Below are positions 2,306 through 8,102 of a stretch of DNA of 64,000 nucleotides, in pieces (within the stretch, counting starts at the first letter, position 1; every line of letters begins with the position of its first letter). Made by a program: the position numbers and the translations under genes. The stretch comes from Bdellovibrio bacteriovorus (GTDB lineage Bacteria > Bdellovibrionota > Bdellovibrionia > Bdellovibrionales > Bdellovibrionaceae): assembly GCF_001592755.1 (NCBI RefSeq), contig NZ_LUKF01000017.1, positions 251,646 through 315,645 of the forward strand, written 5' to 3'. The notes under the pieces are model-generated. The model had not been told where the DNA came from and did not search any database. It worked only from the letters and a program-made list of their open reading frames with translations.

Positions 2306-2423
2306 GCTCTTTATCTGCGCCTGGATTTCTTCTTTGGCAAGTTCTCATTTTGTGACGTCTGATTTCCTATCAATAGCAGTCCTAAATTGTCGCTATCTCA
2401 GACCGAGACATGCCAGCTCACTT

Positions 2424-2439
2424 ATAGGGGAGCCCCTAT
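2424..2439 (+). promoter_or_regulatory. Inverted repeat abutting the -24 element
   Basis: ATAGGGG (2424-2430) and CCCCTAT (2433-2439) are perfect 7-base arms with a 2-base spacer. The last base is also the T of the sigma-54 -24 element TGGCAC. Its position suggests a site for a protein that touches or blocks the polymerase, but no binding partner is evident. Confidence 0.4.
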
Positions 2440-2454
2440 GGCACCCTCCTTGCC
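2439..2454 (+). promoter_or_regulatory. Sigma-54 (RpoN) -24/-12 promoter
   Basis: TGGCAC (2439-2444), five bases, TTGCC (2450-2454): the invariant GG and GC are 12 bases apart as the family requires. The predicted start is near 2465, about 30 bases before the ATG of the 1330-residue gene. Such promoters need an AAA+ activator bound upstream; none is encoded in this window. Confidence 0.75.
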
Positions 2455-2495: not shown

Positions 2496-5400
2496 ATGAA
2501 GATCCGTACCTTTAAAGCTTTAACAATGGCGATGGCGAGCACTTTTATCGTAGGCATGGCGGCACCGGTTTCTCAGGCTCACGCTTTCACGATGCCTTGG
2601 AAAAAGGCCGAAGCGGCTCCGCAAAAGGTACAAACAATTGTGATCGGCGTAGACGGACTTAGTTATTACGCTTTCAAAGCCGCACAACGCGAAGGTCTCT
2701 TTAAGGAGTTCTCACAATCAGGTGCGCACGTAGCTCCATTTCCTTCTATGACAGATCTTTCCTGGGCCTCCGTGACTCACACGGCAGACATCTTCGGTAA
2801 TGCCGGTCGTATCAAATCTGTGGAAGCGACTTATTTCGATGATGCCACTCAATCCGTGCAAGGTGATCCTCGCGATTACTATCGTCGCCTTTCTTTTCCG
2901 AAGTACTACATGGGCGCTTTTGAGTTTTTCTTTAATCCGTATGTTGAAGCCTTGATGTATTTCCCAACAGAAGAAGTTCCAAAACTAGAAATCAAAACAG
3001 TTGTCGATGACCTTATTGCTGCTAAACCAAAGCAGTTCCTAACTGGCTATATCGGTGCGATTGATTCTACAGCGCACACTCAAAAGGACCGCTTATTCCC
3101 AGTCATGCGCATTCTTGATGCTGAATTAAAGCGTCTTTTAAAATCTTATAAAGACAAAGGCCAAGATGTTGAAGTGGTTCTAGTTTCGGACCACGGTAAT
3201 ATCGGACGATTCCAAGAAGGTAAGCCTGAAGAAGAATTAATAGGCGTTAACATTGGAGACGTAATTCAAAGAGCGGGTCTTAATAATGTTCAACAACTGA
3301 AAGATTCAAAAGATGTGGCTGTCCCTCTTATGGCATTGGGAACCTGGGCCCCCGTTTATCTAAAAGACCGCAAAAACATGCAAAACTTGATCGGAGAGTT
3401 CCGTAAGGAAAACTGGTTCGATCTTGCAGTGACTATCAATCGTAATAACGAAAGTGAAACTTTGATGGCCGTGACTTCTCAACAAGGAAGCGCCGTCATT
3501 CAGTACGATAAAAAGAACAAACTTTATTACTACTATGCCGAGACTGGAAATGCTCTTCGCATCGACAAAGAGTATATTTCTACGAAAGCGGCTCCCAAAG
3601 CCATCCAGCCTAAAGATCTAGTTAAAGCTTCTGAAAACTCATTATACCCAGACGCGATCTATCGTTTGGTCGAATCAGCTTCCGAAAGAAACTTCGACTT
3701 CCCAGATTTCATCCTGACTTTAAAAGATGGTTACTATATCAACTCTTCATTGGGCGCATTTACAAAAATGTACCGCACACACGGTTCATTGACGGCTTCA
3801 TCTTCTTACGGATTGATGGCTTCAAATAAAAGAGCGATCCCTGGTCAAATCCGTTCTAAAGACATTCTTCCTTACCTTGGTATTGAACCTAAATCCCTTT
3901 TCGGAGAAACATCTCGCCGTTCTGATTTTTCAGCTCAGCAAGCGCTTGAAGACGTTGTGAAAAATGCCACTCGCGGTGTAGAGACGGAAGCAAAAAATCT
4001 TTCGCAAAAACGCATCTTCCAACATATTTCAAGATTCGTTTCTGACACGCGTCCGTATTTCCTAGTTTCAGAAATGAAAAGTTTCATGGATGCTTTCAAA
4101 TTCGATCCATTCCAGAAATCGCCATCTCAAGCTCTGACTCCAATGAGCTTTGATATCAGTAAGTTCGACGTGACAACAATGATCAGCCCTGAAGATATCG
4201 GTGCGGTCACGGATGCAGTTCTAACTTCAGGTTCAGTTGATAACTTGATGAATGACCCGCGCGTGCAAAAAGTAAAAGAAAAAGTAGGTCTATTGCAAGA
4301 CTCTAAAGGTGCGGGTATTGAGTGGAAGCAAGAAGAAGGGGCGACAGGCCTAGATTCTACTTTGAATAAATTTAAACAATACATCCTTCCGGCAAAACGT
4401 GCCGTGATGAAGATGTACCAAATGCCATATCTTTTAGAAAAATCCATCGTGGTTCAGGAAAAGCCTTACATCCCTGAAACTCGCGATCTGCAATTTGCTC
4501 GCACGTGGACTTCTAATAAATCTGACTTGGTTAAGAGTTATAAAGCTCTAAATTCTCCAAGCAATAAGCAAGTAGCCCAAGTTCAATCTCTGTTAAAAGA
4601 AGCTATCAAAGAAGCAGAGTTGGAAGAACGCGTTTACCCAACGGCTCTTTCTAAAGTCTATAATGAAAAACTTGATGACGTGACTCTAGTTTATGTTCCC
4701 GGCATCTATAACAGCATCTTTGACAGAGAAATCTTCAGTCTAGGCCTCAACGCTGTCAGCGATGAAATGGGTGTACGTGTCATCACGCCACCAGTAGAAG
4801 CAACATGCTCTAGTGATTACAATGCAGAGATCATTCTAAAATACCTTCGTGAAGATTTTAAGGCCCGTCAAGCGCGCGGTCATAAAGCTCCTCGCTACTT
4901 GATCGTGGGTTACTCTAAAGGTGCTGTTGATACACTTCATGCCTTTACAAAAGCAGGTTCTTTTGTGTCGACATACGTAAAAGGTTTCGTGGCAGTCGCG
5001 GCTCCTTTGCATGGCTCTAGCATCCTAAATACAACAGACGTTCCTTTCGCGTTGGTTTCAGCTCTTTCTGAAAATGAAGGTCCTGAAGTTTGTAAAACAG
5101 AAAAGACAGCTTCTAAGTCTATCACGCCAACAGCGATGGAAGCTTTCTGGAGAAAAAATGAGACATCCCTCATTGGTCTGACTCGTTACTTCTCTGTGAC
5201 TTTCGAAAGTGATCCTGAAGATTCACACATCTTCATGAAAGCGACGAAAATCATCGGTCAGTTTGATGAAAGCAATGACGGTGTTGTGACGGTGTCTTCT
5301 TCGAAGTTCCCGAAAAAGCTGATGGCCTTGGATATGGGAACTATCAAAGCCGATCACTTGGCAGGTATCTTGTCTTCTCGCTTTAACCAAAAAGCCTTTA

Positions 5401-6488
5401 TGAAAGGTTTGGTTCAATCGATGGCAGAATTGAATGTGACCGATGACAAAGAAAATCTTCGCTGGAACACGCAAGTGATCTTAGCTGAAGCGAATCGTCA
5501 TCCCTTCAAAACTCAAAGCTACGCTCGTCTTGGAAAAGACGGTCTAGCGAAAGTGTACTCGTTAAAGGCTGAGCACTTGGTAGATTTCCTTCCGTACGGA
5601 AACTCTCACGAGTTGAACCGTCAATTAATCCCGGCGGTGAATGACCCGGCATCAAGCTATGAAGTGAAAACAAAACTTCCAAGCTCTCAGTTAAGCTATG
5701 ATCCGTATGCGGTGTTGGATGTACAAAAACTTCCAGACATTATGGCGGTGAAAAAAGTCAGCCCAGCAACTCGCGCGAACATGCCAAACGGCATTAACAT
5801 TGAGTACAATCACAAGAACATGGTGCACTTCCGTATGGATCACCAGTTCAATTACGAGTCGCGCTCTCCGGGTGGTTTGGATGACAACAAAGACTTTGGT
5901 TATATTACGGCGGAATACAATGGCGAGCCATGGGCTTTGATGAAGAGTGTTAATAACTCTATGCGCATGACTACTTTGGCCTACAGATTTTCACCGGTCG
6001 AGTTTTCAAAAATGAACTTAAAGCTGGCTGTAACCAAGGGTGTTAAAGGCGCGGACCCTGTAAAAGGCAAAACGGGCATTGATGACTCTGCTTTCCAGGT
6101 GTGGTTCACAGTTCGTATTGGTAAAGCGAACGGCGATCGTACTTTAGTAGATCCAAAGAATGACAAGGTTGTTCTTTTCGGTTACTACTGGGGTGATGAA
6201 GTTTCTGGTGAAAAAAGACAAGCCGGACAGATTTTTGAAAACTGGTACTCTAACAAAAATATTGTCGTAGCGACTTTGCCAGAGGCAAAACAACTTTTGC
6301 TAAACAATCAAGACATGCTGGGTAAAGCACAAAACTACCAGCGCAACTTGGCTGAAGACTTGGCAAAAGCTTTCCCGGGCGTTTCAGTTGATGATATGGA
6401 GATCGCAGCGATCACTATCCAGCATGACTCTAACGACGCGAAAGATTCTTCGGAAGCTTATTTCAAAGGATTGAGCTTCCAACCATAA
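2496..6488 (+). CDS. Exported three-domain hydrolase: AlkP/phosphodiesterase + alpha/beta hydrolase + DUF3047-like
   Basis: A 1330-residue protein with a signal peptide (about residues 1-30, cleavage near SQAHA). Residues about 45-470 look like the alkaline phosphatase/type I phosphodiesterase fold: D53 in IGVDGL, a S/T-rich nucleophile region near residue 85 (PSMTDLSWAS), D190-x3-H194, D232-H233 in VSDHG and H429 in RTHGS, which together match the two-metal site. Residues about 690-960 form an alpha/beta hydrolase with VPGIYNS and nucleophile S807 in GYSKG. The last about 230 residues resemble DUF3047 (FGYYWGD, the W in ENWYSN, and IAAITIQHDSND). The ribosome site AGGAGGG lies 7 bases before the ATG. 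A sigma-54 promoter precedes it and a second alpha/beta hydrolase follows after 10 bases. A phospholipid-type substrate is inference. Confidence 0.75.
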   Translation: MKIRTFKALTMAMASTFIVGMAAPVSQAHAFTMPWKKAEAAPQKVQTIVIGVDGLSYYAFKAAQREGLFKEFSQSGAHVAPFPSMTDLSWASVTHTADIFGNAGRIKSVEATYFDDATQSVQGDPRDYYRRLSFPKYYMGAFEFFFNPYVEALMYFPTEEVPKLEIKTVVDDLIAAKPKQFLTGYIGAIDSTAHTQKDRLFPVMRILDAELKRLLKSYKDKGQDVEVVLVSDHGNIGRFQEGKPEEELIGVNIGDVIQRAGLNNVQQLKDSKDVAVPLMALGTWAPVYLKDRKNMQNLIGEFRKENWFDLAVTINRNNESETLMAVTSQQGSAVIQYDKKNKLYYYYAETGNALRIDKEYISTKAAPKAIQPKDLVKASENSLYPDAIYRLVESASERNFDFPDFILTLKDGYYINSSLGAFTKMYRTHGSLTASSSYGLMASNKRAIPGQIRSKDILPYLGIEPKSLFGETSRRSDFSAQQALEDVVKNATRGVETEAKNLSQKRIFQHISRFVSDTRPYFLVSEMKSFMDAFKFDPFQKSPSQALTPMSFDISKFDVTTMISPEDIGAVTDAVLTSGSVDNLMNDPRVQKVKEKVGLLQDSKGAGIEWKQEEGATGLDSTLNKFKQYILPAKRAVMKMYQMPYLLEKSIVVQEKPYIPETRDLQFARTWTSNKSDLVKSYKALNSPSNKQVAQVQSLLKEAIKEAELEERVYPTALSKVYNEKLDDVTLVYVPGIYNSIFDREIFSLGLNAVSDEMGVRVITPPVEATCSSDYNAEIILKYLREDFKARQARGHKAPRYLIVGYSKGAVDTLHAFTKAGSFVSTYVKGFVAVAAPLHGSSILNTTDVPFALVSALSENEGPEVCKTEKTASKSITPTAMEAFWRKNETSLIGLTRYFSVTFESDPEDSHIFMKATKIIGQFDESNDGVVTVSSSKFPKKLMALDMGTIKADHLAGILSSRFNQKAFMKGLVQSMAELNVTDDKENLRWNTQVILAEANRHPFKTQSYARLGKDGLAKVYSLKAEHLVDFLPYGNSHELNRQLIPAVNDPASSYEVKTKLPSSQLSYDPYAVLDVQKLPDIMAVKKVSPATRANMPNGINIEYNHKNMVHFRMDHQFNYESRSPGGLDDNKDFGYITAEYNGEPWALMKSVNNSMRMTTLAYRFSPVEFSKMNLKLAVTKGVKGADPVKGKTGIDDSAFQVWFTVRIGKANGDRTLVDPKNDKVVLFGYYWGDEVSGEKRQAGQIFENWYSNKNIVVATLPEAKQLLLNNQDMLGKAQNYQRNLAEDLAKAFPGVSVDDMEIAAITIQHDSNDAKDSSEAYFKGLSFQP

Positions 6489-6498
6489 AAGGAAGTTC

Positions 6499-7251
6499 AT
6501 GTCGGGTTCTAGAGAGTGGGTCTTAATTCGTGGCATCGTCAGTGAAGAATTTCACTGGTGGGATTTTCTGCCCGAAATGAAGACCCGCTTCCCGCAAGAT
6601 CTTCTGCATACTCCGGACATCATCGGTAATGGAAAGTTTTTTGAAAAGACCACTCCTTGGAGAGTGAAACCCAATATCGAAGGTCTTCGTTCCCAAGTTC
6701 CGACAAATAATAAAAAAATTCTTTTTGGGTTTTCTTTAGGCGGAATGCTTTCGCTTGAATGGGCGCATACCTACCCGGAAGAGGTGAGGGCGGTCGTTCT
6801 TGTAAACTCCAGTCTTAACAATTCTCCTTTTTATCGCCGAATGACTCCAGGAGCATTTCTGAATATTGCAAAGCTCGCGGCTGTGAAAGATCACGTCGTA
6901 AAAGAAGAACGCGTCTTAAAGATGACAAGCTTCCTTCCTGAAGAGCGAATTAAAAGCATGGCTCCTGTCTGGGGCGAACGAAGTCAGAAGTATCCACTGC
7001 GTCCTACCAACTTCTTGTGGCAATTGGCGCTAGCTTCGCAGATTCCGCAAAGGGAAAAACCCCAGATTCCGGTCTTAGTTTTATCGTCGGGTAAAGATAA
7101 GGTCGTGCATCCATCTTGCTCAGAGCGAATTGCAAAGAAATGGAATCTTCCTTTGATCACGCACCCCGAAGCAGGGCATGATCTTTTCTTGGACGACCCA
7201 CACTGGATCCTGAATCAGCTGCAAAACTGGTTAGAAAAAGAAAAGATTTAA
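6499..7251 (+). CDS. Alpha/beta hydrolase (BioH/esterase-like)
   Basis: A 250-residue cytoplasmic alpha/beta hydrolase without signal peptide. The nucleophile elbow is GFSLGG near residue 77, and the acid and histidine are suggested by LSSGKDKVVHP and EAGHDLFLDDP near the C-terminus. The pattern, including the W-rich N-terminus and short lid, is close to BioH-type carboxylesterases, but biotin genes are not nearby and the assignment stops at hydrolase. It starts 10 bases after the large exported hydrolase and is probably co-transcribed with it, so the two may act on the same class of ester on either side of the membrane. It ends overlapping the convergent PAP2 gene by 4 bases. Confidence 0.82.
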   Translation: MSGSREWVLIRGIVSEEFHWWDFLPEMKTRFPQDLLHTPDIIGNGKFFEKTTPWRVKPNIEGLRSQVPTNNKKILFGFSLGGMLSLEWAHTYPEEVRAVVLVNSSLNNSPFYRRMTPGAFLNIAKLAAVKDHVVKEERVLKMTSFLPEERIKSMAPVWGERSQKYPLRPTNFLWQLALASQIPQREKPQIPVLVLSSGKDKVVHPSCSERIAKKWNLPLITHPEAGHDLFLDDPHWILNQLQNWLEKEKI

Positions 7252-7883
7252 AACTGTGTGAGCCACTGATCAATGGCTGGAGAAAACTTCTCTGCCACCG
7301 TGAACATCCACAGGGCTGTGACTGCACCCGCAAAAACGTCCATCGTCCAATGAGCTCTTAATAAAAGAACAGTGATTACTTCGTAAATCACAATGAAAAT
7401 AGCTAGCGCGGTAAATAAGGGCCCGCCTAAAGAAGCCACTTCTAAAGCACCAAAGACTGCTAAGGCCGTGTGACCAGAGAAAAACAAATCGTTCGAAACA
7501 CCGTAAGTCACAAATAAGGAAGGAAAGCCCGGGTCTTTCCAAATCATACCTTCCGGCGTAGGCAATACGGTGATGACTTGATTGATCTGACGAAGCGCGA
7601 ACAGAAAGAACAATCCAAAAAGAGGTCGGATGGACGGGCCCAATAAAGCCGATGCAATCAGAAAGATCCCCAAAGCATCCACAATCAAAGAGCTTGAGAT
7701 TAAAAGCGCGCGTGATCCCCAAGGGTGATGTTGTAAAGTGGCGTTGATCTTGTCGGTGAACTTATGAACAGAATCATGAATAGCACCCGCATGCTTCTGA
7801 TTTCTTTTTCCCAAAAGTTTTTGCGAGAATAACCAAATGGCGACAGCTCCTGCCGCGATCAAGCTTTTAATAACCAAACTCAT
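7248..7883 (-). CDS. PAP2-like membrane phosphatase
   Basis: An integral membrane protein with about 5-6 helices. It has the phosphatidic-acid-phosphatase type 2 motifs SGHTA (about residue 132) and RAHWTMDVFAG (about residue 180), typical of PAP2 and the related sphingomyelin-synthase-like branch; the histidines are the catalytic ones of the family. The usual first motif (K-x6-R-P) is not obvious. The start at 7883 is chosen because AGGTG lies 7 bases upstream; the frame stays open to a TTG at 7970. It probably dephosphorylates a lipid phosphate at the inner membrane. The stop shares bases with the stop of the opposite-strand hydrolase. Confidence 0.78.
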   Translation of the reverse strand: MSLVIKSLIAAGAVAIWLFSQKLLGKRNQKHAGAIHDSVHKFTDKINATLQHHPWGSRALLISSSLIVDALGIFLIASALLGPSIRPLFGLFFLFALRQINQVITVLPTPEGMIWKDPGFPSLFVTYGVSNDLFFSGHTALAVFGALEVASLGGPLFTALAIFIVIYEVITVLLLRAHWTMDVFAGAVTALWMFTVAEKFSPAIDQWLTQF

Positions 7884-8102
7884 AGCCCACACCTGCTTTG
7901 AGGTCACCATAGCCCATTGCTGCTTTTCAGAAAAGAAGAACTTGTAGATCCCTTGGGCGGCCCTCGACAAAATCTGTCTTCAGGCGCTTCAAGGCGTTCT
8001 GAGGTCTTCGTCTTATAATGAGAATCGTTAGAAATATCAGGAGATTAGAAGAACTCCCCAATGGCTTTTTCTTTGCACCGTAAAGAAGAGATCGAGGTGT
8101 AT

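What the first reader, a model, noticed from the sequence alone, without database searches (positions are those of the whole stretch)
2496..6488. AlkP-type, alpha/beta-hydrolase and DUF3047-like domains fused in one exported protein
Metal-site residues of the alkaline phosphatase superfamily (D53, D190, H194, D232, H233, H429), a GYSKG nucleophile (S807) and a DUF3047-like end occur in a single 1330-residue chain. I am not aware of this combination. A second alpha/beta hydrolase follows and a PAP2 gene is convergent, so a phospholipid breakdown set is plausible.
Basis: partly seen in the sequence, partly recalled or inferred. Interest (0 to 1): 0.7.

Follow-up and report, generated by a model that had tools for sequence, protein, structure and literature searches.

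The report
Predator's three-part secreted lipid/phosphate hydrolase
A Bdellovibrio-type predatory bacterium carries one exported protein that joins a metal-dependent phosphate-cutting domain, a lipase-like domain and a poorly known beta-sandwich domain; it is conserved across predators, has its own switch-like promoter, and its probable counterpart in the model strain has been found inside killed prey.

Summary
ORF 2496-6488 (+) is an intact, strongly conserved 1330-aa exported protein of a Bdellovibrio genome. An NPP-type alkaline phosphatase-superfamily domain, a family-I-lipase-like alpha/beta hydrolase and a DUF3047 domain are each supported by HMM, profile or fold evidence. The active-site residues (D53, T/S86, D190, H194, D232, H233, H429; S807, D928, H954) are kept in all 24 orthologues examined. 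The fusion is one clade in two domain trees and spans three families of the phylum. (1) A sigma-54 promoter plus dyad lies upstream; the combined pattern occurs once per genome in 9 of 10 genomes, always at this gene. (2) In 12 genomes of three genera the gene sits beside the same second hydrolase and PAP2 gene (better called sphingomyelin-synthase/PDCT-like). In five others, including HD100, it sits inside the ppk-ppx-phoU-phoB-phoR cluster. (3) The HD100 orthologue is, by gene order, Bd1012, which Tyson et al. 2024 detected in killed prey and called only an 'AB-hydrolase'. Most likely it is a secreted enzyme with two active sites that breaks phosphate and acyl esters of prey envelope lipids. 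The substrate is inferred, not shown. New variant of a known kind; interest 0.55.

The parts
2389..2409 (+). Dyad-like upstream site (gtcgctaTCTCAgaccGAGAC), probable binding site of a sigma-54 enhancer-binding protein
   Evidence: GTCnC-N2-3-TCYC-N4-[TC]GARAC found upstream of 14 of 17 aligned orthologues; the pattern together with the sigma-54 element occurs once per genome in 9 of 10 genomes searched, always at this gene, controls 0. The window's own copy departs from the searched form (CGAGAC, shorter spacing)
2439..2454 (+). Sigma-54 (-24/-12) promoter TGGCACCCTCCTTGCC
   Evidence: TGGCAY-N5-TTGCC 48-59 nt before the ATG in 15 of 17 orthologues, 0 in 8500 dinucleotide shuffles; rpoN present in genomes
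2496..6488 (+). 1330-aa exported fusion protein AlkP - helical linker - lipase-like alpha/beta hydrolase - DUF3047
2496..2585 (+). Sec-type leader, about residues 1-30 (AHA before F31)
   Evidence: read from the sequence; similar leaders in orthologues
2625..3905 (+). AlkP-superfamily domain (about residues 44-470); metal ligands D53, D190, H194, D232, H233, H429; nucleophile position T/S86
   Evidence: Pfam PF01663 35 bits; all top-50 VIA rows AlkP superfamily, Z up to 10.2; residues invariant
3933..4565 (+). Conserved, mainly helical linker region (residues 480-690), no family
   Evidence: alignment A7; secondary structure of a low-confidence model
4593..5450 (+). Lipase-like alpha/beta hydrolase domain (about residues 700-985); S807 (GYSKG), D928 (NDGVV), H954 (DHLAG)
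5652..6485 (+). DUF3047 domain (about residues 1053-1330), probable beta-sandwich
   Evidence: GH12-type jelly-roll rows
6499..7251 (+). Second alpha/beta hydrolase (250 aa, no leader seen), 10 nt after the fusion's stop codon, probably cotranscribed here
   Evidence: Pfam Abhydrolase_1 58 bits; orthologues (at least 47% identity) in the same 12 genomes as the PAP2 gene plus fusion
7248..7970 (-). Membrane PAP2-superfamily protein resembling PC:DAG cholinephosphotransferase / sphingomyelin synthase (LRQINQVITVLPTP, SGHT, HWTMD motifs)
   Evidence: PF24788 46.4 bits, cut-off 27; adjacent to the fusion in 12 of 13 genomes that have it. The true start is probably nearer residue 25-30, where orthologues begin to align

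Best explanation
The gene encodes a secreted hydrolase with two active sites that is used during predation. It is transcribed from its own sigma-54 promoter, switched by an enhancer-binding protein that recognises the TGTCnC..TCTCA...TGAGACA site (promoter shown as a conserved pattern; regulator inferred). It is exported by a Sec leader and delivered into prey (inferred from the probable identity with Bd1012). In the prey envelope the AlkP domain, with two metals and T86 as nucleophile, splits phosphate esters, and the lipase domain (S807-D928-H954) splits acyl esters. The DUF3047 beta-domain holds the enzyme on its substrate. Together they would strip prey glycerophospholipids or similar lipids into headgroup, fatty acid and glycerol parts. 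A membrane headgroup-transferase-like protein and a cytoplasmic hydrolase, encoded beside it in part of the lineage, would handle the products. Domain folds and catalytic residues are supported by computation; substrate and order of steps are inferred.
For: All three domains identified. Both catalytic sets kept in 24 orthologues. Fused forms make one clade for both enzyme domains, 100/100 support, in three families. Top AlkP fold matches include the lipid or headgroup esterases ENPP6 and ENPP7 and the autotaxins, close in Z to phosphonoacetate hydrolase and SPAP. The lipase domain matches true lipases and also phospholipase PlaB. Conserved trio with a second hydrolase and a PDCT-like protein in 12 genomes of three genera. 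The HD100 orthologue is by gene order Bd1012: soxR is Bd1002 and phoB is Bd1017, and no other gene scanned between them gave an alpha/beta hydrolase match. Bd1012 was found by mass spectrometry in empty killed prey (PMC11003981). Private sigma-54 promoter.
Against: No substrate data. AlkP-superfamily enzymes are promiscuous, and the model of that half is poor (mean pLDDT 50). In five genomes the gene lies in the ppk-ppx-phoU-phoB-phoR cluster, which points to phosphate supply rather than lipid breakdown. Seven of 24 genus genomes lack the gene, so it is not essential for the lineage. The Bd1012 identity rests on counting locus tags, and the secretome may hold proteins from lysed predators, as its authors say of some peptides (PMC11003981).
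Confidence: 0.42

Rival explanations
1. Phosphate-scavenging exoenzyme: the AlkP domain releases phosphate or phosphonate from many organic compounds, and the lipase part only makes buried headgroups accessible. Its role is phosphorus nutrition rather than prey killing.
For: In five genus genomes, HD100 among them, the gene lies between sixA/ppk and ppx in a cluster with phoU, phoB and phoR. The best VIA row is phosphonoacetate hydrolase, Z 10.2, and SPAP phosphatase is among the rows.
Against: 12 genomes have it elsewhere, beside lipid genes. The two half-site Pho-box scan found nothing convincing upstream of the gene; the promoter is of the sigma-54 type instead.
Confidence: 0.25
2. The enzyme acts on a phosphorylated, acylated glycolipid of the prey outer membrane, such as lipid A or LPS, with DUF3047 as a carbohydrate-binding module.
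For: Lipid A carries both phosphate and acyl esters (established knowledge). The model of the DUF3047 half gives GH12-type jelly-roll matches, a fold common among sugar-binding domains.
Against: GH12 rows come from a model of moderate confidence and Foldseek does not print the aligned range; nothing ties DUF3047 to sugars.
Confidence: 0.15
3. The protein modifies the predator's own envelope lipids, for example recycling headgroups for a sphingolipid or phospholipid made by the neighbouring PDCT/sphingomyelin-synthase-like protein.
For: Strict linkage of the trio in 12 genomes; the PDCT-like neighbour is an integral membrane protein of the predator.
Against: Ten fusion-bearing family genomes have no such PAP2-type gene; the HD100 orthologue is probably found in prey remains.
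Confidence: 0.15

Closest known systems
Bd1012 of B. bacteriovorus HD100 (Tyson et al. 2024, PMC11003981, 'kiss of death' secretome)
   Same: Very probably the orthologue (about 74% identity, same three domains); reported there as a secreted candidate of the wider AB-hydrolase family
   Different: The AlkP and DUF3047 parts, the fusion's history, its promoter and its neighbours are not described in the passages read
NPP / type I phosphodiesterase branch of the alkaline phosphatase superfamily (Xac NPP, ENPP6, ENPP7, phosphonoacetate hydrolase)
   Same: Two-metal ligand set, T/S nucleophile position in FPS-x-T, Pfam PF01663, fold
   Different: About 10-15% identity to solved members; fused to a lipase; the Asn that NPP enzymes carry near the nucleophile could not be placed with confidence
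Bacterial true lipases (families I.2 and I.5) and carboxylesterase MGS0156
   Same: Fold (Z 16-20), catalytic Ser, NDGVV Asp and DH His
   Different: Below Pfam thresholds; GxSxG reads SYSKG in 9 of 24 orthologues; embedded in a larger protein
DUF3047 (PF11249)
   Same: Profile-profile match, DD-x-A and DS-N/D-D-T signatures
   Different: Most DUF3047 proteins found in this phylum are stand-alone, about 220-290 aa; here it closes a 1330-aa enzyme

Membership tests
AlkP superfamily, NPP-like (PF01663) | Score above the curated Pfam cut-off | tested here: met
   35 bits versus 23; 10 of 12 relatives match; the HD100 orthologue alone scores 19.3, below the cut-off
AlkP superfamily, NPP-like (PF01663) | Six metal ligands and a Ser/Thr nucleophile | tested here: met
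   D53, D190, H194, D232, H233, H429 invariant; T/S at 86 in all 24; ligand assignment by motif, not by a solved structure
AlkP superfamily, NPP-like (PF01663) | AlkP fold | tested here: inconclusive
   All top-50 VIA rows are AlkP superfamily, Z 7.6-10.2, but model pLDDT 50; Foldseek alone reaches only 1.0e-3 to a sulfatase
AlkP superfamily, NPP-like (PF01663) | Phosphoesterase activity | not testable with these tools
   needs assay
Family I lipase-like alpha/beta hydrolases | Alpha/beta hydrolase fold | tested here: met
   Foldseek 1.9e-9; VIA Z 20.3, rmsd 3.6, 245 aligned, to 5d8m
Family I lipase-like alpha/beta hydrolases | Ser-Asp-His triad | tested here: met
   S807, D928, H954 invariant in 24 fused and kept in two stand-alone relatives
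Family I lipase-like alpha/beta hydrolases | Match to a curated lipase Pfam family | tested here: not met
   Window member matches none; weak PGAP1 in 4 of 16 relatives. So it is called lipase-like, not filed under a lipase family
DUF3047 (PF11249) | Score above the curated cut-off | tested here: inconclusive
   Window member below (18.9-22.7 versus 27), several orthologues above
DUF3047 (PF11249) | Profile similarity to stand-alone members | tested here: met
   hhalign 98.1%, E 7.9e-14 over 154 columns
Sigma-54-dependent promoter | TGGCAY-N5-TTGC with GG/GC ten bases apart, near the gene | tested here: met
   15 of 17 orthologues, 0 of 8500 shuffles; rpoN present
Sigma-54-dependent promoter | Cognate enhancer-binding protein | not tested
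   no candidate identified
Sphingomyelin synthase / PDCT-like PAP2 (neighbour 7248-7970) | Score above the PF24788 cut-off | tested here: met
   46.4 bits versus 27; transferase activity not testable here

The most novel reading that the evidence does not exclude
A single secreted protein strips prey membrane lipids of both headgroup and acyl chains, and is switched by an enhancer-binding protein whose site-plus-promoter pattern occurs only at this gene in each genome: a dedicated predation effector with a private regulatory circuit.
Probability: 0.25. Interest if true: 0.72.

Novelty: new variant of a known kind. Interest (0 to 1): 0.55.

Why it matters
How Bdellovibrio takes apart prey membranes is, to my knowledge, poorly resolved at the enzyme level. 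A conserved protein carrying both a phosphoesterase and a lipase site, probably detected in prey remains, is a direct candidate for that step. The conserved sigma-54 site gives a handle on how a predation gene is timed. It also gives an architecture context for DUF3047, a domain of unknown function.

Tried and rejected
A Pho-box explanation for the gene's control was tried because of the Pho cluster in HD100: a two half-site scan of upstream regions gave best scores of only 8-11 of 14 at inconsistent places. A first pattern for the upstream site was too strict and matched nothing; the corrected one worked. A single-mismatch search for sigma-54-like sites in the window was no better than shuffles, so the claim rests on conservation, not on the window alone. 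Sequence searches against solved structures with the single protein found nothing and with the AlkP profile only weak ENPP hits, E 0.018 and worse; the DUF3047 profile found none. No NCBIfam family and no PADLOC defence family matches the fusion. A stretch in a more distant genome (L047, 7192-7712) holds only broken remnants of the first and last domains and was not counted as an orthologue. Papers: DUF3047 appears in one held paper, as unknown.
Full report
What was checked. The ORF at 2496-6488 (+) is a complete 1330-codon gene with an ATG start and AGGAGG shortly before it. So the organism is a Bdellovibrio.

Domains. Pfam finds a type I phosphodiesterase/NPP domain above cut-off and DUF3047 below cut-off, and nothing for the middle hydrolase. 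Two AlphaFold runs on halves, with only 7 and 8 aligned sequences, gave mean pLDDT 50 and 61. Even so, all top-50 VIA rows of the N-terminal half are AlkP-superfamily enzymes: phosphonoacetate hydrolase Z 10.2, ENPP6 9.3, SPAP 8.6, ENPP7 8.5, Xac NPP 8.5. Foldseek alone was weak for that half. The C-terminal half matches carboxylesterase MGS0156 (Foldseek 1.9e-9; VIA Z 20.3) and a long list of bacterial lipases. A profile of the hydrolase domain finds MGS0156 by sequence at 4.6e-11. The same Foldseek list contains GH12 jelly-roll proteins at about 1e-4, which most likely reflects the beta-rich C-terminal domain; that is inference, since Foldseek does not print ranges here. DUF3047 membership was settled through relatives: orthologues exceed the cut-off and hhalign against 14 stand-alone DUF3047 proteins gives 98.1% and E 7.9e-14.

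Active sites. In 24 full-length or nearly full-length orthologues, down to 33% identity, D53, D190, H194, D232, H233 and H429 are invariant, position 86 is always Thr or Ser, and S807, D928 and H954 are invariant. FPSMT at 82-86 lines up by eye with the FPxxT nucleophile motif of NPP enzymes (established knowledge). Position 805 is Gly or Ser, so the strict GxSxG is broken in 9 of 24. A rough NG86 comparison with a 94%-identical orthologue gives dN/dS near 0.02 for each domain, with dS saturated.

Distribution and history. The fusion is in 17 of 24 genus genomes (one of them only as a C-terminal fragment on a short contig, one split over two contigs), five other genera of the family, two genomes of family f12 and one of f26. 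Stand-alone AlkP relatives (about 440-610 aa) occur in other orders, and stand-alone hydrolase relatives (about 400 aa) are common in f12. In trees of both enzyme domains the fused forms make one clade with 100/100 support, so one fusion event is the simplest account; long branches separate fused from unfused, so the exact sister is not known.

Neighbourhood. The second hydrolase (6499-7251) starts 10 nt after the fusion's stop. Its orthologues (at least 47% identity) occur in 12 of 29 genomes tested. They are the same 12 genomes that have both the PAP2-type gene and the fusion among 66 family genomes, and in all 12 the three are adjacent, in varied order and orientation, in three genera. One further genome (G158) has the PAP2 gene without the fusion. 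The PAP2-type protein scores best with the plant PC:DAG cholinephosphotransferase family, and its LRQINQVITVLPTP, SGHT and HWTMD stretches resemble sphingomyelin synthase motifs (recalled, not tested). In five genomes without that pair (G001, G004, G006, G008, G021) the fusion lies between sixA/ppk and ppx, next to phoU, phoB and phoR (the phoU label is mine, from the sequence).

Promoter. Upstream of the gene, in both kinds of neighbourhood, an exact TGGCAY-N5-TTGCC element sits 48-59 nt before the ATG in 15 of 17 orthologues, never in 8500 shuffled upstreams. The genomes encode sigma-54. Further upstream lies GTCnC-N2-3-TCYC-N4-TGARAC. The two together occur exactly once in each of nine genomes, always at this gene, with no reversed-pattern control hits; the window's own genome is the tenth and misses the exact pattern because of a C for T and shorter spacing. 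The upstream site alone turns up at a few other places. In G012 one lies before another exported protein of unknown family with a near-sigma-54 element, so the regulator may have a few more targets.

Literature link. In HD100, soxR is Bd1002 and phoB is Bd1017 (PMC3818213). Counting back from phoB over phoU, an outer-membrane-type protein, ppx and a transposase gives Bd1012 for the fusion, and no other gene scanned between Bd1002 and Bd1017 gave an alpha/beta hydrolase match. Tyson et al. 2024 list Bd1012 among wider AB-hydrolase proteins found by mass spectrometry in empty, killed prey (PMC11003981). They note low peptide numbers and some contamination from burst predators. I could not check the locus tag against the annotated record, nor read the supplement.

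Reading. The protein works like a secreted phosphoesterase joined to a lipase, with a beta-domain that may hold it to its target. Breakdown of prey envelope lipids is the best single account, but the Pho-cluster location keeps phosphate scavenging open. The fold and catalytic-residue claims are computational; the substrate, delivery into prey and regulator are inferred.

Noticed in passing
window 7248-7970 (-): The PAP2-type membrane protein matches plant PC:DAG cholinephosphotransferase (PF24788) and sphingomyelin-synthase-like motifs better than classic PAP2; possible bacterial headgroup transferase.
   Followed up: partly
L117 (G012:C1 near 1508170), match at 1501-1521: The same upstream site with a near-sigma-54 element precedes an exported protein of about 440 aa with no Pfam family; a possible second target of the unknown regulator.
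   Followed up: partly
L047 7192-7712: Remnant of the fusion in a family f12 genome: pieces of the first and last domains only, in more than one frame, as after an internal deletion and decay.
   Followed up: partly
L041 6185-7372, L042 7389-8606: Stand-alone relatives of the lipase-like domain in family f12 sit in the same neighbourhood in both genomes (beside dnaX/recR-like genes), suggesting a separate conserved role.
   Followed up: no
L027 / L046 3215-7612: The f26 fusion has a longer frame (1519 aa open) and inserts in the linker region; that genome also has a separate stand-alone AlkP relative (L045) and two stand-alone DUF3047 matches.
   Followed up: no
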